A stretch of 64,000 bases of DNA from Pseudanabaena sp. lw0831 (GCF_016584665.1 NZ_BBJB01000016.1:124001-188000); one strand, 5' to 3'; positions 34,624 through 43,431 are shown, counted from the stretch's first letter. A program made the numbers and translations. Notes: a model not told the origin generated them from the letters alone.

Positions 34624-35706
34624 TTAAATACTTACTGTTTTTTGGCTGAGATAGCGATCGCACAACACCAAAGCCACCATTGCCTCCACCATTGGCACGG
34701 CGCGAGGTAATACACAAGGGTCATGGCGACCTCGACCTGTGAGTGTGGTATCTTCACCCGTGACTGATACCGTCTTCTGCTCTAGCAAAATTGTCGCAGT
34801 GGGCTTAAAAGCAACTCGTAAAATGATATTTTCGCCGTTGGAAATGCCGCCTTGAATGCCGCCAGAATTATTAGTACGAGTGCGGATGCGATCGCCTTCC
34901 ATGTAGAACTCATCGTTATGCTCACGACCAGTTAAGCGAACACCATCAAATCCTGAACCAATCTCAAATCCCTTACTGGCTGGCAAAGACATCACTGCTT
35001 TGGCTAGATCCGCTTCCAATTTGTCAAATACAGGATCGCCCAAACCAACAGGTACATTTCGCGCCACACATTCGATGATGCCGCCGACGGAGTTGCCATC
35101 GCGACGGATTTTGTCGATGAAGTCGATCATTTTTTCCGCCATTTCAGGATTGGGACAGCGCAAAATGTTACTTTCCACTTGTTCCATTGTGACTGTATTC
35201 GGATCGATATCAGGCGCAACCATGTCTTTAACCTGTTTTACATAGGCAATGATTTCGACACCTGCGGCTTGTTTGAGGATTTTTTTAGCGATCGCACCTG
35301 CGGCAACCCGTCCGATCGTTTCCCTCGCCGAAGATCTACCGCCGCCTTGCCAATTACGAATGCCATATTTTGCTTGATAGGTGGCATCAGCATGGGATGG
35401 GCGGAACTTTTCAGCCATTTCGGAATAGTCTTGGCTACGAGCATCTTTGTTCTGCACCAAAATCATGATCGGTGTGCCGAGGGTTTTCCCTGCAAATACG
35501 CCTGACAAGATCTGAGCGCGATCATCTTCGCGGCGTGGGGTGACGATTTTGCTTTGTCCTGGTTTACGGCGATCGAGGTCAATTTGAATATCGGCTTCGC
35601 TCAGTTCTAGTTGTGGTGGGCATCCATCGATGATCGCTCCCACGCCCCCACCGTGAGATTCCCCAAAAGTCGTGACGCGAAATAAAGCCCCGAATGTACT
35701 GCCCAT
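34624..35706 (-). CDS. aroC: Chorismate synthase
   Basis: This 360-residue enzyme converts EPSP to chorismate, the last shikimate step, using reduced FMN. All three family signatures are present: [17 protein letters not shown] at the start, [20 protein letters not shown] in the middle, and [18 protein letters not shown] later. Length is normal. It is monocistronic as far as visible, with repeats on both sides. Confidence 0.97.
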
Positions 35707-35765
35707 GTTTAAATTTTGAATCCTAAAAAATACTAAAAATTAATGATGACCTAAGTTTGACCATT

Positions 35766-35869
35766 AAGTACCTCAGCATAATTAAATATAAAACCCCAAG
35801 AATCTGTACCGCCCGCTTAGCGGGCGGTACAGATTCTGGTTCTGGATTTTTAATTATGCTGAGGTACTT
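35766..35869. repeat. 104-bp nested palindrome (MITE-like) upstream of aroC
   Basis: Outer perfect arms of 21 bp (35766-35786 with 35849-35869, starting AAGTACCTCAGC) enclose an inner perfect 18-bp hairpin (35799-35816 with 35820-35837) with loop TTA and a GC-rich CCGCCCGC core. The two arm levels are separated by short unmatched segments of unequal sequence. It lies in the 482-bp gap between aroC and the CHAT gene, where no gene is seen. Confidence 0.85.
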
Positions 35870-36035
35870 ACTTAATTTTAACGTTAGTTCGACGAAGCCG
35901 AAAACATATGACTGCGATCGCTTCATATCGCTGCTCATTTTTTGCTTAACAAATAGTAGAAATTGCTGAATAAAAATCCTTTACTGTTTCAGGACTTCAT
36001 GATAATTTAGTCGGTAAGATAAGTTGTTGGAATTA

Positions 36036-36117
36036 AACGTAGGATGGGTTAGCGATAACGTAACCCATCATTGACAACTAATTGATGCGTTACGTTTCAC
36101 TAATGCATCCTACATTT
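36036..36117. repeat. GTAGGATG...CATCCTAC interspersed repeat
   Basis: Outer arms GTAGGATG (36039) and CATCCTAC (36106) enclose two inner stems, GATGGGTTA/TAACCCATC and GATGC/GCATC. This is the arrangement of a widespread cyanobacterial intergenic repeat with GATGGGTTA and GATGCGTTA halves. It ends about 70 bp before the CHAT-haemagglutinin start, so it may lie within that gene's leader. Confidence 0.75.
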
Positions 36118-36188
36118 AATCAAGCCTTCCTACTTAGATCTACTTTTTGCTGACAGTAGTTATTAATTTTTCTCTGGTGTGAGTTGAA

Positions 36189-39100
36189 ATGAGAAACAAA
36201 TTTTGTCTACTTTTGTCAGCGATCGTTTCCTTAAGCATCGCCCATTCTACCCAAGCCCAGATCGCAACTGATGGCACTACGGCTACTCAAGTAAATGGCA
36301 ATGCGATCGCTCCAACAGGAGCAGGCACGGTCAATGGCAATAATCTTTATCATAGCTTTGGTGAATTTAACGTACCGCAGTCGGGAGTAATCTTTAATAC
36401 TGGAAACTCTGCGGTCAATGGCGCTGACGTTCGCAACATTATCAATCGGGTTACAGGCGACAACCCCTCTGCGATTTTAGGCACGCTTGAGAGCCGTCAA
36501 GCTTTTCCTAATGCTAATCTTTATCTCATGAATCCCAATGGGATTGTATTTGGACAAAATGCCCGTTTAGATATTGGTGGCTCCTTTCATGCGACTACAG
36601 GCACTGCTTTGGGCTTCGATAGCGGCACTTTTAATGTTGATAGAAATTCTCTTAGCTTTCCCAATGGTGATCCGAAAACGATTCGCTTTGCGATCGCTCA
36701 ACCTGCTGGGCTTATCAATCAAGGTAATTTAGCGGTAGATGCTGGTAAATCGATTACTTTTACTGGCGGCAGCATTATCAATACAGGCACATTGACGGCT
36801 CCTAGTGGCAATGTTGCTTTAACTTCTGTGGCAGGAAATAGTCTAGTTGAGCTGCGATCTCCTGATGCAGTTTTAGGTCTGCAAGTGACAAACAATGCTA
36901 TTCCTACTAACTGGAATGGCAAGATTACGGAGTTACCCAAATTAGCGGAGCTACTTACTGGCAAAGTACCAGAAGCCAATCAGGTGGTGGTTAAAGCTGA
37001 TGGTTCGCTGGCTCTAGTAGCAACTCCTGCGGCTACCGATATTGCGGTGACCAATGGGATGGCGATCGTTTCGGGGCGAGTTGATGTATCTTCTCCAGCA
37101 TCAAAGGCAGGCAATGTTGGGATTTTTGGTGAAAAAGTAGGATTGGTGAATGCTCAGATTGATGCGTCTGGAGCACTTGGCGGCGGGACAGTTTTAATTG
37201 GTGGAAATTTTCAGGGTAATGGCATAGCGCCGAATGCGTTGAGAACTTTTGTAAGTGCGAATTCCAAGATTGATGTTAGTGCGCTTTTGCGTGGAAATGC
37301 TGGCACTGCGATCGTTTGGTCTGATCTCAACACCAGATTTCTTGGATCAATTATTGCCAAAGGTGGAACTCTTTCTGGTGATGGAGGACTTGTGGAGGTG
37401 TCAGGTAAACAGAACCTTGATTTCAGAGGAACTGTAAATACCTTTGCTCCCAAAGGAAAAATTGGCACATTACTGCTTGATCCGACAGATATTAACATCA
37501 TCGGTACTGGTGGTTCGTTTACAGGTGGATTGACTGATGTAGATCAATTTAGTGACATCGATCAAGGTGGAAATACACTGGATGTAAATTTCATTAATAC
37601 TGCATTAGCGAATGTCACTTTACAAGCAACGAATGACATAAATTTTAATACTCCTGTGGCAATTGCTTTGTCTGGTGTCGGATTGACGGCTCAAGCCAAC
37701 AGAGATATCAATTTTAACGATAGTATTACCACAAATGGTGGAGCAATTAACTTTAGCGCGGGGCGCAATATTACAGGTACGGCTGGAACGGGAAATCTAA
37801 TTACAAATGCAACTAATGCTGGGGATATCAATCTCACTGCTGGTGGAAATATCAGTGTAAATAGCTTCCAAGCGATTCCTCCGACAAATGGAAATGGCGG
37901 CAATGTAATTGTGCAGGCAGGCGGAAACATTCAAACCACAGGGGTTGCCAATATTTTTAACGAAACTATTACAACAAATGTTGGGACTACTTTTAGTGGT
38001 AATGCAGGAAATATTTCCCTGACGAGTATAAACGGAGCCATCAACGTTAGTTCTGGGCGAGTTACTGCTACAACTCCTACAGGAAATAGTGGCAACATTA
38101 CCTTTCAGTCATTTGGCAACATTAAGACAGGTACTAATACTCTAGATTCGGTGAGTTCCTTTGTTGGGACTGGTAATGCAGGAAATATCTCCCTGACGAG
38201 TACAAACGGAGCGATCGACGTTAGCTCTGGGCGAGTTGCTTCTTCTGCAACTGATGGTAAGAGCGGTAATATCACATTGCAAGCATTCGGTAATATTATT
38301 ACTGGAGCAGGAGTATTTCCAAATGCTGCTGTGTCTTCCATTATCGGTTTCGGTGGTACTGGGACTCCTGGCGCGATTTCGATAACTAGTACGAATGGCG
38401 CGATCGATACGAGTTTGGGAGATATAGATGCTGGAAATTCAAATATTGGTAATGCTGGTAATGTTTTCTTTCAAGCGGCCAGTAATATTGTTACTTCTAA
38501 TGTAACCGCTGCAACATTTGATGCTAGTGGCAACGGCGGAAGAATTAGTCTCATCAGTCAATTTGGTTCTATTAACACTACATTAGGACAACTCAATGTG
38601 GGAGCTTTAGGCAATGGTGGAAGTATTTTCCTTCAGGCGTTAGGAAATGTCACAACCAGTAATCTTGCAGCAAGTAGTCTTTTACTTGGTAACGCAGGAT
38701 CTATCTCTGTAACTAGCACTAGTGGAGCGATTAACACGACCCTCGGTAATGTTAGAGCAAGGATCAATGGAGGGAATGGCAATGGAGGTATTATTAATTT
38801 TCAAGCATTTGGGGACATCACTACAAATGAAATTTTGGCGACAGGCACATTAGGCGGCGGTACTATCAACCTGACTAGTACAGGTGGCGCGATTAATACA
38901 ACTACAGGAGATATTAATGCTAGTTCTATCAGTGGCAATGGGGGCAATATCAACTTCAAAGCCCGCAATAGCATTACAACCACTAATCTTAATACCAGTA
39001 GCGATCTTGGTGTTGGCGGCAATATTAGCCTCGATCCCATCGGTGACATTGTTCTAACCTCTGCAAATACATCGGGATCGATTCAGGGTGGTAATTTCTT

Positions 39101-40706
39101 CGCATCCTCAACAGGCGGAAGTATCAGGGTTACTGGCTTTGTGTCTAGTGTATTTGCCGCTTGTGCAGGATCGAGTATTTGTTCTGCTAGCAATAGCGGT
39201 GGCACAGGCGGTCAGATATTTCTGAGTCATGGTGGACTTAACCCATTTGTGATTGGCAATTCTAGTACTAATGGAACCGCAGGTATCGTTACTACAGGAT
39301 CTTCCACCTTAGCTCTAGGAAGCATTATTCCCGTCGGCACAAGTATTTTTGCGCAAGGCAATATTCTTGTCGCGCCATCAGGTAACACAATATTTACCCC
39401 ACCAAAGATTTTAGTCAAGGTAAATACTGTTGATATAGAGAAGAACGATTTGCTCGCAATCAGAGATGTGATGAAAAAAGAGGTCGATCGCTTCTTAAAA
39501 GAAGAAAAATTAGACAAAGCTTTTGAGGCGATCGAAAAAGCCTATATCTCTGAGTTAGGGATTTTCTTGGGGGAACCTCTCAAGCTGCCAACTTTAACCA
39601 TCAACCAAGCCCAAGATATATTAAGCGATGTCTCAAAGCGATCTGGAAGTCCCTCTGTGTTGATCTATCCGATTATGCTGAACGATCGCATCGAGATTCT
39701 GGTCATTCCGCCTAAGGAACTTGGCAAACCCTTTCATCGCTATACCAACTATGCTAACGAAGAGGAAATCATTACAGTTTTGACGGATTATCGAGCCAGC
39801 CTCCGCGATACAAGCTCTCTGGACTATTTAGAACAGGCGCGAAAGCTTTATGACTGGGTGATGCGTCCGATTGATACTCAACTGCAAGCACTAAAAATTG
39901 AAACAGTTGTATTTGTGATGGACTCTGGCTTACGAGTGATCCCTCCTGCGGCTCTTCATGACGGTAAACAGTTTTTAGTAGAGCGCTATGCTTCGGCAAA
40001 TATTCCCGCATTACGGGTGACTAGACTAGAAGAGCGCGATCGCAAAAACACGCGGGTTTTAGCAATGGGTCTGACAGAGGCAAGAGAAGGCTTGAGTGCA
40101 TTGCCAGCCGTGGAAGTGGAAATTAGAACGATTACTACTCAGGTGTTAGCTGGGACTACGTTTTTAGACCGAGACTTTACAGTCAATAATCTTCAATCGC
40201 AACGTGGTAAAGAGAAATATGGAATTCTCCATTTAGGAACGCATGGAAAATTCTTGCAAGATCGATCTAATGAGTCGTTTATTCAGTTTTGGAATGGGAA
40301 GCTACGATCCAGCCAAATCCCTAGTCTAAGATTTGATCAACCTGTGATCGATATGCTGACCTTAAGTGCTTGTGAAACTGCTGTTGGCAACAATCTTGGT
40401 ATCAGTGGCTTGGCGGTTGAGTCAGGGGCTAGAAGTATTCTTGCATCTCTGTGGACAGTATCGGATGCGGGGACAGCGCCTTTGATGATTAGTTTTTACA
40501 AGGCTTTCCCTGATGCGCTGAGTAAGGCTACGGCTCTAAGAAAAGCACAGCTTGATTTGATAAATGGGAAAGTCAAGATTGTGAATAATCAAATTGTCGG
40601 GGTTGAAGGTTTAGCTGCGATCGCATTGCCAAAGGGAACTGGAAATGTCGATATCAGCCACCCTTTCTTTTGGTCATCTTTTATTTTGGTGGGTAATTGG
40701 CTATGA
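36189..40706 (+). CDS. Two-partner-secretion exoprotein with C-terminal CHAT protease domain
   Basis: This 1505-residue protein starts with a signal peptide cut near AHSTQAQ. A TpsA secretion domain follows (residues about 25-260: HSFGEFNVPQSG, YLMNPNGIVFGQNARLDIGG). A beta-helix region comes next, with repeats such as AGNISLTSTNGAIDVSSGRV. A charged helical linker leads to a CHAT domain (about 1190-1505) with His1352 in LHLGTHGKF and Cys1395 in LSACETAVG, both in the right motifs, ending in the family HPFFWSSFILVGNW. CHAT domains are caspase-like cysteine peptidases. It pairs with the TpsB transporter gene 128 bp downstream. Confidence 0.92.
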   Translation: MRNKFCLLLSAIVSLSIAHSTQAQIATDGTTATQVNGNAIAPTGAGTVNGNNLYHSFGEFNVPQSGVIFNTGNSAVNGADVRNIINRVTGDNPSAILGTLESRQAFPNANLYLMNPNGIVFGQNARLDIGGSFHATTGTALGFDSGTFNVDRNSLSFPNGDPKTIRFAIAQPAGLINQGNLAVDAGKSITFTGGSIINTGTLTAPSGNVALTSVAGNSLVELRSPDAVLGLQVTNNAIPTNWNGKITELPKLAELLTGKVPEANQVVVKADGSLALVATPAATDIAVTNGMAIVSGRVDVSSPASKAGNVGIFGEKVGLVNAQIDASGALGGGTVLIGGNFQGNGIAPNALRTFVSANSKIDVSALLRGNAGTAIVWSDLNTRFLGSIIAKGGTLSGDGGLVEVSGKQNLDFRGTVNTFAPKGKIGTLLLDPTDINIIGTGGSFTGGLTDVDQFSDIDQGGNTLDVNFINTALANVTLQATNDINFNTPVAIALSGVGLTAQANRDINFNDSITTNGGAINFSAGRNITGTAGTGNLITNATNAGDINLTAGGNISVNSFQAIPPTNGNGGNVIVQAGGNIQTTGVANIFNETITTNVGTTFSGNAGNISLTSINGAINVSSGRVTATTPTGNSGNITFQSFGNIKTGTNTLDSVSSFVGTGNAGNISLTSTNGAIDVSSGRVASSATDGKSGNITLQAFGNIITGAGVFPNAAVSSIIGFGGTGTPGAISITSTNGAIDTSLGDIDAGNSNIGNAGNVFFQAASNIVTSNVTAATFDASGNGGRISLISQFGSINTTLGQLNVGALGNGGSIFLQALGNVTTSNLAASSLLLGNAGSISVTSTSGAINTTLGNVRARINGGNGNGGIINFQAFGDITTNEILATGTLGGGTINLTSTGGAINTTTGDINASSISGNGGNINFKARNSITTTNLNTSSDLGVGGNISLDPIGDIVLTSANTSGSIQGGNFFASSTGGSIRVTGFVSSVFAACAGSSICSASNSGGTGGQIFLSHGGLNPFVIGNSSTNGTAGIVTTGSSTLALGSIIPVGTSIFAQGNILVAPSGNTIFTPPKILVKVNTVDIEKNDLLAIRDVMKKEVDRFLKEEKLDKAFEAIEKAYISELGIFLGEPLKLPTLTINQAQDILSDVSKRSGSPSVLIYPIMLNDRIEILVIPPKELGKPFHRYTNYANEEEIITVLTDYRASLRDTSSLDYLEQARKLYDWVMRPIDTQLQALKIETVVFVMDSGLRVIPPAALHDGKQFLVERYASANIPALRVTRLEERDRKNTRVLAMGLTEAREGLSALPAVEVEIRTITTQVLAGTTFLDRDFTVNNLQSQRGKEKYGILHLGTHGKFLQDRSNESFIQFWNGKLRSSQIPSLRFDQPVIDMLTLSACETAVGNNLGISGLAVESGARSILASLWTVSDAGTAPLMISFYKAFPDALSKATALRKAQLDLINGKVKIVNNQIVGVEGLAAIALPKGTGNVDISHPFFWSSFILVGNWL

Positions 40707-40834
40707 CTTATCATCGCTTTGCGATCAAACCTGAACAAAGTTTTTTATGATCGTAAATTGCTGTAATTGTTGTGTATAGTAATGCGATCGCAATCTTTGG
40801 GCTACAAGATTCGTGTAATTTATCAATTTGAGGT

Positions 40835-42574
40835 GTGAGGGTGAGTCAAAATTTGAACCGTCTAATCAAAGCAAGCAGCAAGATTATTATGATCTTGCTA
40901 CCAAGCCTACTGCTCATTGGATTGCCTAGCGAGGCTCAACAAGTCCCCTCATCTTTCCCATTAACTCGCCCACCAGAAGCTTTATCCCCAAAGCTACCCG
41001 TTAAACCACAGACTCCAATCCTCACATCCCCTTCAACAAGTCCACAAGACAATCCATCACCCCCTTCTGTAAATGAAGTCTTAATTCCAGTCAAGCGAAT
41101 TGATGTTTTGGGAAGTTCAATTCTCACATCAGTAGAAATTGAAACACTTGTGTCGCCGTTACAAAATAAATCGGTTACGCTCAGCCAATTGCAGGAAGTT
41201 GCCGATAAAATTACGCAAATCTATCAAGATCGAAACTATATTACTTCTCGTGCTGTCCTTACGCCGCAAGATATTAAAGATGGTGTGGTCACAATTCAAG
41301 TTAGAGAAGGAGCTTTGGAGCGAGTTGATGTCAAGAGATCGGGAGATGTAATTGGCAGGTTAAATGATAGCTATATCCGCGATCGCATCCTGCAAGCAGC
41401 ATCAACGCCTCTAAACTTTACTTATTTGGAAGACGCACTTCAGCTATTGCGATCTGATCCTTTAATTGGGGACATTCGAGCTAATTTAACTACTGGCAGC
41501 CAGCAAAATCAGAGCATTTTGCAAATTACGTTTAGCGAAGCAAAGTCTCTGAGCATCCGTCCATTTTTTGATAACTATGGCAATACTTCCACAGGGATCT
41601 ATCGCGCTGGCGTGAATTTGCAAGAACTTAACACGACAGGTATTGGGGACTCGACTTTTGTTGGCTATACCCGCTCTGGCAGCTCAGATGTTTATCAACT
41701 GAATTATCAATACCCGATTAATCCTAAAGGTGGAACCCTAGTCTTTAACTTTTCTGCAGGTCAAAACCCGATTACTGAGAAGCCTTTCGATAGCTTGAAT
41801 ATTCTCACAGATTCGCAAACCTATGAGTTAGCATACCGTCAACCATTATTGCGATCGCCCCGTGAAGAGTTTGCCCTTGGCGGCAGTATTGCTTTTGAGA
41901 ATAGTGGCTCCTATTTTGGTAATCGATCATTTAATTTTCAAAATTTCAAGTTTGATGATGGGCGATCGCAGTCCAGAGTTTTACGATTTAGCCAAGATTA
42001 TTTAAACCGCGATCCAGATGGTGCTTGGGTATTGCGTTCCACCCTAAATCTGGGTCTAAATATTCTCGGAGCAACGATTCGCAATGATGGTTCGCCTGAT
42101 GGTAGGTTTTTCTATTGGATTGGTCAAGTTTTGAGGGTGCAACGTCTTGGTAATGATAAAGATACCTTGGCTTTCTTTCGCTTCAATATGCAGTTTTCGG
42201 GAGATCAGTTGCTGTCTCTTAATCGGTTTAGTATTGGTGGTTATCAATCTATTCGCGGCTATCGCCAAAATCAACTGGCCGGCGATAGCGGGCTTCAGGC
42301 TTCAGTAGAGTTCCAATTTCCCGTGGCACGAGATGAAGAAGGAGTATCTATTGTGAAGCTATTACCTTTTGTGGAAGCTGGCACAATTTGGAATTCTTCA
42401 GGTGTAAATTCGACAACTCAGTCATTGTTTGGTCTGGGCTTAGGTGCAATCTATCAACCACTTCGCAATCTAGTTCTGCGTCTTGACTATGGAATTCCTT
42501 TAGTAAATGTCTCTAACTCAGGCAATAATTTGCAAGATTCAGGACTTTACTTCTCTGTAAACGCAAATTTTTAA
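40835..42574 (+). CDS. TpsB outer-membrane transporter (ShlB/FhaC family)
   Basis: This 579-residue outer-membrane protein has a signal peptide (ending near LPSEAQQ) and a proline-rich linker. A POTRA domain follows (about 80-155: VKRIDVLGSSILTSVEIETL, ITSRAVLTPQDIKDGVVTIQV), then a 16-strand barrel of the ShlB type with the conserved GGYQSIRGYRQNQLAGD hairpin. It ends in the aromatic residue Phe. It would export the CHAT-domain exoprotein encoded upstream. The start is GTG; a second GTG two codons on is an alternative. The spacing suggests one operon. Confidence 0.92.
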   Translation: MRVSQNLNRLIKASSKIIMILLPSLLLIGLPSEAQQVPSSFPLTRPPEALSPKLPVKPQTPILTSPSTSPQDNPSPPSVNEVLIPVKRIDVLGSSILTSVEIETLVSPLQNKSVTLSQLQEVADKITQIYQDRNYITSRAVLTPQDIKDGVVTIQVREGALERVDVKRSGDVIGRLNDSYIRDRILQAASTPLNFTYLEDALQLLRSDPLIGDIRANLTTGSQQNQSILQITFSEAKSLSIRPFFDNYGNTSTGIYRAGVNLQELNTTGIGDSTFVGYTRSGSSDVYQLNYQYPINPKGGTLVFNFSAGQNPITEKPFDSLNILTDSQTYELAYRQPLLRSPREEFALGGSIAFENSGSYFGNRSFNFQNFKFDDGRSQSRVLRFSQDYLNRDPDGAWVLRSTLNLGLNILGATIRNDGSPDGRFFYWIGQVLRVQRLGNDKDTLAFFRFNMQFSGDQLLSLNRFSIGGYQSIRGYRQNQLAGDSGLQASVEFQFPVARDEEGVSIVKLLPFVEAGTIWNSSGVNSTTQSLFGLGLGAIYQPLRNLVLRLDYGIPLVNVSNSGNNLQDSGLYFSVNANF

Positions 42575-42577
42575 AAC

Positions 42578-42617
42578 CCAAAAAGAAGGGTAGAAGAAGC
42601 GCTACCCTTCTTTTTGG
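42578..42617. terminator. 16-bp hairpin directly after the tpsB gene
   Basis: A perfect 16-bp stem (starting CCAAAAAGAAGGG) with an 8-nt loop begins 4 bp after the tpsB stop. The right arm contains five Ts, as in intrinsic terminators. It probably ends the secretion operon. Confidence 0.65.
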
Positions 42618-42663
42618 AACCAGTTTTTGTGGCGCGACTTCGCCGCGCCACAAAAACTGGTTC
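42617..42663. repeat. 20-bp perfect hairpin abutting the Uma2 stop
   Basis: Arms GAACCAGTTTTTGTGGCGCG and its reverse complement surround a 7-nt loop. It shares one base with the preceding hairpin and ends 2 bp before the stop of the convergent Uma2 gene, so it may serve as the terminator of that gene. It belongs to the GC-cored hairpin type seen elsewhere in the window. Confidence 0.75.
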
Positions 42664-42664
42664 T

Positions 42665-43321
42665 TTATGAGTTTATCTGTTGTCTTATCCATTTCCTAAA
42701 CTCACGGATCAATTTGTTGTCATCATTGGATACTGACTGTTGCAAAAATCGATTAAGAATCTCACTAGAAACCATCGGGAATGCAAAACTGAAATCGTTT
42801 TCCAAATATGCGTCGCCTTGCAATTTATAGATGCGGATACTTGAATCGCTATATTTCCATATTTCTGGTACATCTAGATCTCTATAAATTGCAAATCTAC
42901 GATCGCTAGGACTAGTAATATCAACTTCAACGACCAAATCAGGAGGTGGATCGATCTCAAGGTCAATTTCACGACCACTAATGCGATCGCTGTTTTGAAT
43001 ATAAAAACAACAGTCTGGCTCTACACCTACAGCTAAGTCTTCTCGATTTAGTCTTGTCGAGCCAAATCCCCGAATGCCTAAATCTAATTCTTCTGTTAGT
43101 GCAATAACTATTCTCTCTAGGATGTAGTTGATGGTTTCATGCAATCCCAAAGGCATTTGTATTTCTAAAACTCCGTGATAATAAGCTAAATGAATAGATC
43201 GCTGGTCGCCCATATCAGTCAGCATGGCTTGGTAGGTTTGCCAACTAATATTTGGCAGTACAGCGTTATTAGCTGGTGCTGCTGCAATTTCTGGTTTGGA
43301 TATGATGGATGTAATAGTCAT
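42665..43321 (-). CDS. Uma2 family (DUF820) PD-(D/E)XK-like protein
   Basis: The protein has 218 residues of the Uma2/DUF820 family, abundant in cyanobacteria. The fold motifs are VGVEPDCCFYIQN, DPPPDLVVEVDITSPSD (nuclease-type Asp and Glu), and an IYRDLDVPEIWKY strand. The usual catalytic Lys position is not obvious. Function in the cell is not established; a restriction-like or mobile-element-linked nuclease has been proposed for the fold. It is convergent with the secretion operon and looks like a solitary accessory gene. Confidence 0.85.
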   Translation of the reverse strand: MTITSIISKPEIAAAPANNAVLPNISWQTYQAMLTDMGDQRSIHLAYYHGVLEIQMPLGLHETINYILERIVIALTEELDLGIRGFGSTRLNREDLAVGVEPDCCFYIQNSDRISGREIDLEIDPPPDLVVEVDITSPSDRRFAIYRDLDVPEIWKYSDSSIRIYKLQGDAYLENDFSFAFPMVSSEILNRFLQQSVSNDDNKLIREFRKWIRQQINS

Positions 43322-43431
43322 AGCGGTTTGCTACTACGATTTCATTAAGGTTGATGAAAATTTGAGATGCGTTATATAACTTTTAGCACAAAACTACAAA
43401 ATGGCTCTCTGAATTAAATATATCTGTAGCC

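What the first reader, a model, noticed from the sequence alone, without database searches (positions are those of the whole stretch)
36189..42574. CHAT cysteine protease carried on a two-partner-secretion exoprotein
The exported TpsA-type protein ends in a CHAT domain with His1352 and Cys1395 in canonical motifs, and its TpsB transporter is next to it. Known CHAT enzymes act in the cytoplasm, often after activation by partners. Here the signal peptide and TPS domain predict that the protease is threaded through the outer membrane to the cell surface. It could be a surface peptidase, a contact toxin, or a self-cleaving adhesin that releases its beta-helix.
Basis: partly seen in the sequence, partly recalled or inferred. 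Interest (0 to 1): 0.75.

Follow-up and report, generated by a model that had tools for sequence, protein, structure and literature searches.

The report
Exported caspase-like protease on TpsA exoprotein
A cyanobacterial outer-surface protein of the two-partner-secretion type really does end in an intact caspase-like (CHAT) cysteine protease; this fusion is widespread and strongly conserved in photosynthetic cyanobacteria, and where it is not fused the protease gene usually sits next to the exoprotein gene, which points to an undescribed protease system working outside the cytoplasm.

Summary
Observation confirmed. The ORF at 36189-40706 has a signal peptide, a TPS secretion domain (PF05860, E 2e-34), a beta-helix-like passenger, and a complete C-terminal CHAT protease (PF12770, E 2e-57) with His1352/Cys1395. 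TpsB follows at 40835-42574.

It is not a one-off. TPS and CHAT hits share one open frame in 19 of 19 cyanobacterial genomes checked. In 68 distinct fusions the His/Cys dyad is kept 68/68. The catalytic Cys is the only Cys of the CHAT domain in 65/68, and the only Cys from TPS domain to C-terminus in 33/68 (835-3736 aa), as expected for an exported thiol enzyme.

The premise that CHAT enzymes are cytoplasmic fails here: 20 of 22 complete canonical CHAT proteins of this genome begin with signal-peptide-like sequences (heuristic). 29 of 38 TPS loci in six genomes have a CHAT within 10 kb (2.6 expected). All 25 unfused TPS proteins with a CHAT gene nearby carry a C-terminal cysteine pair; a second, independent TPS-TPR-CHAT fusion exists.

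Best reading: a dedicated extracytoplasmic caspase-like protease that matures, anchors or releases TPS exoproteins, here in cis. Contact toxin is disfavoured. Export, topology, substrate and auto-cleavage are untested.

The parts
36189..40706 (+). TPS-CHAT exoprotein gene (TpsA type), 1505 aa
   Evidence: Single open frame; TPS PF05860 and CHAT PF12770 above Pfam cut-offs
36189..36257 (+). Predicted signal peptide, residues 1-23, MRNKFCLLLSAIVSLSIAHSTQA|Q
   Evidence: Hydrophobic core by simple heuristic; exact cut site placed by eye from the sequence; no dedicated predictor was available
36255..36899 (+). TPS secretion domain, residues 23-237
   Evidence: PF05860 E 1.9e-34; TIGR01901 at 55-138, E 2.5e-20
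36900..39377 (+). Passenger, residues 238 to about 1063, probably a beta-helix
   Evidence: AF2 model of residues 755-1505: short strands in turns with high pLDDT up to about residue 1063; residues 238-754 not modelled; no beta-helix structure was returned in the PDB fold search of this model
39162..39182 (+). Cys992-Cys998 pair (CAGSSIC) inside the passenger
   Evidence: Only Cys of the mature protein besides the nucleophile; pair conserved in close relatives; disulfide is inferred
39384..39443 (+). Disordered linker between passenger and protease module, residues about 1066-1085
   Evidence: pLDDT below 50 at model residues 312-331; poorly conserved in relatives
39444..39830 (+). Helical hairpin and first strands that precede the Pfam CHAT domain, residues 1086-1214
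   Evidence: AF2 models
39831..40697 (+). CHAT protease domain, residues 1215-1503
   Evidence: PF12770 E 2e-57; fold matches Csx29 and separase
40242..40244 (+). Codon of catalytic His1352 (HLGTHG)
   Evidence: His in 68/68 fusions
40371..40373 (+). Codon of catalytic Cys1395 (LSACET)
   Evidence: Cys in 68/68 fusions; the only Cys of the CHAT domain in 65/68
40835..42574 (+). TpsB outer-membrane transporter, 579 aa
   Evidence: POTRA_2 and ShlB domains; next to the fusion in orthologous loci L051-L056

Best explanation
The gene encodes a TpsA exoprotein whose C-terminus is a catalytically competent CHAT cysteine protease. It is exported by the Sec pathway and then engaged by the adjacent TpsB. 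It is the in-cis version of a broader cyanobacterial module in which a TPS exoprotein and an exported CHAT protease are encoded together. The protease works outside the cytoplasm and most likely acts on TPS exoproteins, its own first: it cuts in or near the C-terminal stem or anchor and so matures, sheds or releases the beta-helix, much as LapG does to CdrA or SphB1 to FHA. Shown by sequence: the domain make-up, dyad conservation, cysteine pattern, linkage and recurrent fusion. Inferred: export itself, the side of the outer membrane on which CHAT sits, the substrate, and any trigger. I would put about 0.85 on 'exported and catalytically competent' and about 0.5 on the whole statement.
For: Dyad 68/68 in fusions; CHAT has a single Cys in 65/68, and 33/68 proteins have just that Cys from TPS domain to C-terminus, against about 1% Cys in other ORFs and 0.075% in the passengers. 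CHAT-like proteins of the same genome outside this class carry 1-4 Cys per domain and 4-12 per readable protein. Linkage: 29/38 TPS loci in six genomes have CHAT within 10 kb, 2.6 expected; by my count 9 of these are fusions, so 20 of 29 unfused loci. Unfused CHAT-linked TPS proteins: 25/25 end in a hook-like Cys pair and 25/25 have CHAT downstream on the same strand. Independent second fusion TPS-TPR-CHAT in L186/L187, joined at the TPS C-terminus, CHAT of the TPR type. Fused in 19/19 further genomes checked. A disordered linker joins two rigid modules (pTM 0.62 against 0.91 for the protease module alone). Precedents: LepA, a secreted TpsA protease, and CdrA/LapG (PMC5422565, PMC4694147).
Against: No experiment. 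The linker between passenger and CHAT has no conserved cleavage motif. In the fusions the extreme C-terminal Cys of the hook is absent, and the modelled Cys pair lies inside the passenger, not at its end, so a hook-release model cannot be carried over directly. Many fusions lack a TpsB within the fetched DNA, so TpsB pairing in trans must be assumed for them. The substrate could be another protein.
Confidence: 0.5

Rival explanations
1. Fully secreted surface exopeptidase: the whole protein reaches the surface or medium, the beta-helix is only a stalk, and CHAT digests external or neighbour-cell proteins, as LepA does.
For: TpsA proteases of another fold exist (LepA, PMC5422565). Total length varies from under 900 to over 5000 aa while CHAT stays constant, as for a stalk with an enzyme at one end. 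Short signal-peptide CHAT proteins without TPS branch within the fusion clade, so CHAT can act without the exoprotein.
Against: Caspase-like proteases usually have narrow specificity (own knowledge). The close genetic tie of CHAT to TPS genes is not expected of a general digestive enzyme.
Confidence: 0.2
2. Envelope signalling protease: exoprotein state controls CHAT, which cleaves a periplasmic partner such as DUF928 or the CHASE2 sensor of an adenylate cyclase.
For: DUF928 and CHASE2 genes lie in many TPS/TPR-CHAT operons (L001, L161, L165, L167, L168, L171, L181-L183). A CHAT-like fold occurs in the transmembrane anti-sigma factor DdvA (PDB 8rot).
Against: No DUF928 or CHASE2 gene beside the window's fusion; the association is for the unfused form.
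Confidence: 0.15
3. Contact-dependent toxin: CHAT is the C-terminal toxin of a CdiA-like protein.
For: C-terminal position; caspase-like domains occur as C-terminal toxin or processing domains in polymorphic toxins (PMC3482391).
Against: The C-terminal domain is not variable: it is CHAT in all orthologues found (L051-L056), 96% and 80% identical over the last 405 residues in L051 and L053. No immunity-like ORF follows; TpsB does. No PADLOC match.
Confidence: 0.06
4. Non-enzymatic C-terminal plug or folding core, with CHAT acting only as a stable globular end that anchors the protein in TpsB.
For: CHAT lies at the very C-terminus, two or three residues from the end, in nearly all fusions.
Against: Strict retention of the His/Cys pair in proteins otherwise stripped of Cys; the one degenerate relative, with T/P in place of the dyad, has no signal peptide and carries an AAA-like domain instead.
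Confidence: 0.07

Closest known systems
TpsA/TpsB two-partner secretion (type Vb), e.g. FHA/FhaC
   Same: Signal peptide, TPS domain, long passenger, adjacent TpsB with POTRA and barrel domains
   Different: C-terminal CHAT protease; per PMC5422565 the known maturation proteases of TpsA proteins are not encoded in the TPS operons
LepA of Pseudomonas aeruginosa (TpsA protease; PMC5422565)
   Same: A protease secreted by the TPS route
   Different: LepA is trypsin-like (own knowledge); here the protease is a clan CD CHAT domain at the extreme C-terminus
CHAT proteases: Csx29/Craspase and separase
   Same: Same fold and dyad
   Different: Those are intracellular and partner-regulated (own knowledge); 12-16% identity to Csx29 in the fold alignments; no sequence-level PDB match
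HetF of Anabaena (PMC8406250)
   Same: Cyanobacterial CHAT protein
   Different: HetF is a membrane-anchored divisome protein with N-terminal CHAT and TPR; no TPS domain
CdrA/CdrB with LapG (PMC4694147, PMC7616799)
   Same: TPS adhesin with C-terminal cysteine hook and a cysteine protease that frees it; unfused cyanobacterial TPS proteins beside CHAT have a similar C-terminal Cys pair
   Different: LapG is transglutaminase-like, not caspase-like; the window's protein is fused and lacks the extreme C-terminal Cys
Caspase-like domains in polymorphic toxins (PMC3482391)
   Same: Exported clan CD peptidases in modular secreted proteins
   Different: Found there with variable toxin tips and immunity genes; here constant CHAT, no immunity gene

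Membership tests
TpsA exoproteins (type Vb) | N-terminal signal peptide followed by TPS domain | tested here: met
   PF05860 E 1.9e-34; signal peptide by heuristic
TpsA exoproteins (type Vb) | Beta-helical passenger | tested here: inconclusive
   Residues 755-1063 modelled as consecutive short strands with high pLDDT; the fold search of that model returned no beta-helix structure; residues 238-754 not modelled
TpsA exoproteins (type Vb) | Cognate TpsB with POTRA and barrel domains | tested here: met
   Adjacent ORF 40835-42574; conserved beside orthologues
TpsA exoproteins (type Vb) | TpsB-dependent secretion | not testable with these tools
   Needs a tpsB deletion and fractionation
CHAT peptidases (PF12770, clan CD) | CHAT profile and caspase-like fold | tested here: met
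   E 2e-57; Csx29 and separase as best solved folds
CHAT peptidases (PF12770, clan CD) | Catalytic His and Cys present and conserved | tested here: met
   68/68 fusions
CHAT peptidases (PF12770, clan CD) | Proteolytic activity | not testable with these tools
   Needs purified protein
LepA-type TPS exoprotease | Trypsin-like protease domain | tested here: not met
   Only TPS and CHAT match in Pfam
CdiA-like polymorphic toxin | C-terminal domain that varies between relatives and an adjacent immunity gene | tested here: not met
   CHAT constant in orthologues; TpsB, not an immunity gene, follows
Lap-like protease-released adhesin (CdrA/LapG) | C-terminal Cys hook on the exoprotein | tested here: not met
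   Window protein lacks the extreme C-terminal Cys; its Cys pair lies inside the passenger. Unfused CHAT-linked TPS relatives do have the hook-like pair, 25/25
Lap-like protease-released adhesin (CdrA/LapG) | Transglutaminase-like LapG protease | tested here: not met
   The protease here is CHAT

The most novel reading that the evidence does not exclude
Cyanobacteria use caspase-like proteases outside the cytoplasm as a dedicated counterpart of two-partner secretion: TpsB, a hook-bearing TPS exoprotein, an exported CHAT protease (in trans with TPR, or fused in cis), DUF928 and a CHASE2-cyclase form one envelope system that senses or controls exoprotein attachment by proteolysis, analogous to the Lap system but built from unrelated parts.
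Probability: 0.22. Interest if true: 0.82.

Novelty: new variant of a known kind. Interest (0 to 1): 0.62.

Why it matters
CHAT proteases are studied as intracellular, partner-activated enzymes (separase, Craspase) or as a membrane-anchored division protein (HetF). Here a large conserved branch appears to be exported and tied to surface exoproteins across photosynthetic cyanobacteria. If true, it supplies a protease for TPS maturation or shedding encoded in the same locus or chain, which the TPS review says is not the case for the known systems, and gives directly testable candidates for how filamentous cyanobacteria control adhesion and surface proteins. The combination of CHAT with two-partner secretion or haemagglutinin was not found in the open-access papers searched.

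Tried and rejected
DUF4347, which sits in some TPS proteins (L007, L070, L176, L179), was considered as a second CHAT-like peptidase: profile comparison gave a probability of only 0.24% and its motif reads LHIVSEG, so no claim is made. CdrA-type hook for the fused protein: rejected as a direct match, because the modelled Cys pair lies inside the passenger. Conserved auto-cleavage motif in the linker: none seen. Sequence search of the PDB with the CHAT profile: no hit; fold search was needed. Promoter/terminator scan of 35700-43400: no more sites than in shuffles. PADLOC: no match. Paper on DdvA: not found. Plasmids (tblastn): CHAT relatives all below 60% identity, the best in cyanobacterial plasmids; not followed.

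Full report
Observation. The CHAT model is matched over its full length, and the structure model of residues 1065-1505 is confident (pLDDT 90.3, pTM 0.91) and closest to Csx29/Craspase and separase among solved structures. The host appears to be a Pseudanabaena: G003 lies in the window's genus (group code g1), and its contig of 202024 bases (L059) has the same length as the named record of Pseudanabaena sp. FACHB-1998 (L072).

Anatomy. Signal peptide 1-23 (heuristic), TPS domain 23-237, passenger to about 1063, a disordered linker at about 1066-1085, a helical hairpin and strands, then CHAT 1215-1503. The 755-1505 model shows confident consecutive short strands before the linker, which look like a beta-helix, but the fold search did not return a beta-helix structure, so that label is an inference. 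pTM falls from 0.91 for the protease module alone to 0.62 for passenger plus protease, as for two rigid bodies on a flexible joint. The TpsB ORF starts 128 bases after the stop.

Conservation. Orthologues next to aroC, with TpsB on the other side, occur in other genomes of the genus (L051, L052, L054, L055). In L054 and L056 the frame is split into a TPS ORF and a CHAT ORF. The fusion is widespread: a genome-contig scan kept 80 loci, all from cyanobacteria, most of them TPS-CHAT fusions or short CHAT proteins with an N-terminal hydrophobic segment. In a phylum sample, strong matches lie only in genomes of the window's own class (53 of 146 genomes). In 19 genomes chosen from those with long CHAT frames, all 19 have a TPS and a CHAT hit in one open frame. 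In 68 distinct fusions the dyad is 68/68.

Cysteine pattern. In 65 of 68 fusions the nucleophile is the only Cys of the CHAT domain, and in 33 of 68 it is the only Cys from the TPS domain to the C-terminus, in stretches of 835 to 3736 residues. Other ORFs have about 1% Cys and the passengers 0.075%. CHAT-like proteins of the same genome outside this class carry more Cys. This is what an exported thiol protease under strong selection would show. It is indirect evidence, and relatedness among the sequences means the counts are not independent events.

CHAT outside the cytoplasm is common here. By a simple signal-peptide heuristic, 20 of 22 complete canonical CHAT proteins of this genome begin with a signal-peptide-like segment; the same loose test fires on 63 of 169 other ORFs in the loci, so individual calls are uncertain. 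The one CHAT with the dyad replaced (T/P) lacks a signal peptide, carries an AAA-like domain, and branches inside the clade of fused and short CHATs.

Linkage. In six genomes 29 of 38 TPS loci have a CHAT within 10 kb, 2.6 expected; by my count nine of the 38 are fusions, leaving 20 of 29. Of unfused TPS proteins with a CHAT gene nearby, 25 of 25 have CHAT downstream on the same strand, and 25 of 25 have one Cys in the last 16 residues plus one 36-126 residues from the end, against 5 of 12 of those without a CHAT in the fetched stretch. Some of the 12 are affected by fetched boundaries (L169 is the same cluster as L170, which does hold a CHAT; L185 lies at a contig start), and paralogues are not independent, so that contrast is approximate. 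DUF928 and CHASE2 genes lie in many of these operons. A separate fusion, TPS-TPR-CHAT in L186/L187, joins the two partners at the TPS C-terminus.

Tree. In a quick tree of 138 CHAT domains the fused and short forms make one group (support 89) that also holds the single AAA-type CHAT, and the TPS-linked TPR-CHATs lie outside it. For that run nine CHAT ORFs that directly follow a TPS ORF were labelled as fused, as likely split fusions; with strict labels, in a slightly larger tree, the fused group needs 22 changes instead of 6, so the number of origins is not settled.

Mechanism. The resemblance to CdrA/LapG is in the logic: a TPS exoprotein with a C-terminal cysteine hook and a cysteine protease that frees it (PMC4694147, PMC7616799). 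The TPS review states that the genes of maturation proteases of TpsA proteins appear not to be part of the TPS operons (PMC5422565), whereas here they are. I therefore propose that cyanobacterial CHAT proteases act on TPS exoproteins, in trans in the operons and in cis in the window. For the fused form the analogy is incomplete: no extreme C-terminal Cys, the Cys pair inside the passenger, no conserved cut site in the linker.

Rivals. A general surface peptidase, a signalling protease acting on DUF928/CHASE2, a contact toxin and an inert plug were weighed; the toxin and plug readings fit the data least.

Novelty. The parts are known families and a TPS-secreted protease is known (LepA), so this is a new variant of a known kind. 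The exported CHAT branch and its coupling to TPS were not found in the open-access papers searched. Subscription journals and database annotations were not searched, and public databases may already label such proteins by domain.

Noticed in passing
L107:6560-11224, L110:6587-11245, L113:6335-11047, L132:5513-11047, L135:6329-11251: In-frame glycosyltransferase family 2 domain upstream of an internal signal-peptide-like segment, TPS domain and CHAT in five Nostocales loci; Pfam confirmed the GT2 match in L110, L132 and (partly) L113. A real fusion or a missed internal start is undecided.
   Followed up: partly
L001, L161, L165, L167, L168, L171, L181-L183: Recurrent gene neighbourhood TpsB | TPS - TPR-CHAT - DUF928 - CHASE2 (with a cyclase domain in L001); not every member has all parts.
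   Followed up: partly
L007:3067-6282, L070:2593-7017, L176:7274-14377, L179:5724-8693: TPS proteins with DUF4347; L070 has both DUF4347 and CHAT and, past residue 45, just two Cys, one in each domain. DUF4347 motif reads LHIVSEG..YACN.
   Followed up: partly
L010:1285-4365: AAA_35-CHAT without signal peptide whose catalytic His/Cys are Thr/Pro.
   Followed up: no
TPR-CHAT proteins of TPS operons, e.g. L006:3056-5755, L172:14302-16971: Second Cys about 72-75 residues before the CHAT domain in most TPS-linked TPR-CHATs, absent from the fused CHATs.
   Followed up: no
L186:2873-7753 and L187:3366-8246: Second kind of fusion, TPS-TPR-CHAT in one chain of 1626 aa, with a TpsB gene upstream.
   Followed up: yes
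window 42665-43321 (-): Uma2-family putative endonuclease (PF05685) downstream of TpsB on the other strand, not part of the system.
   Followed up: no
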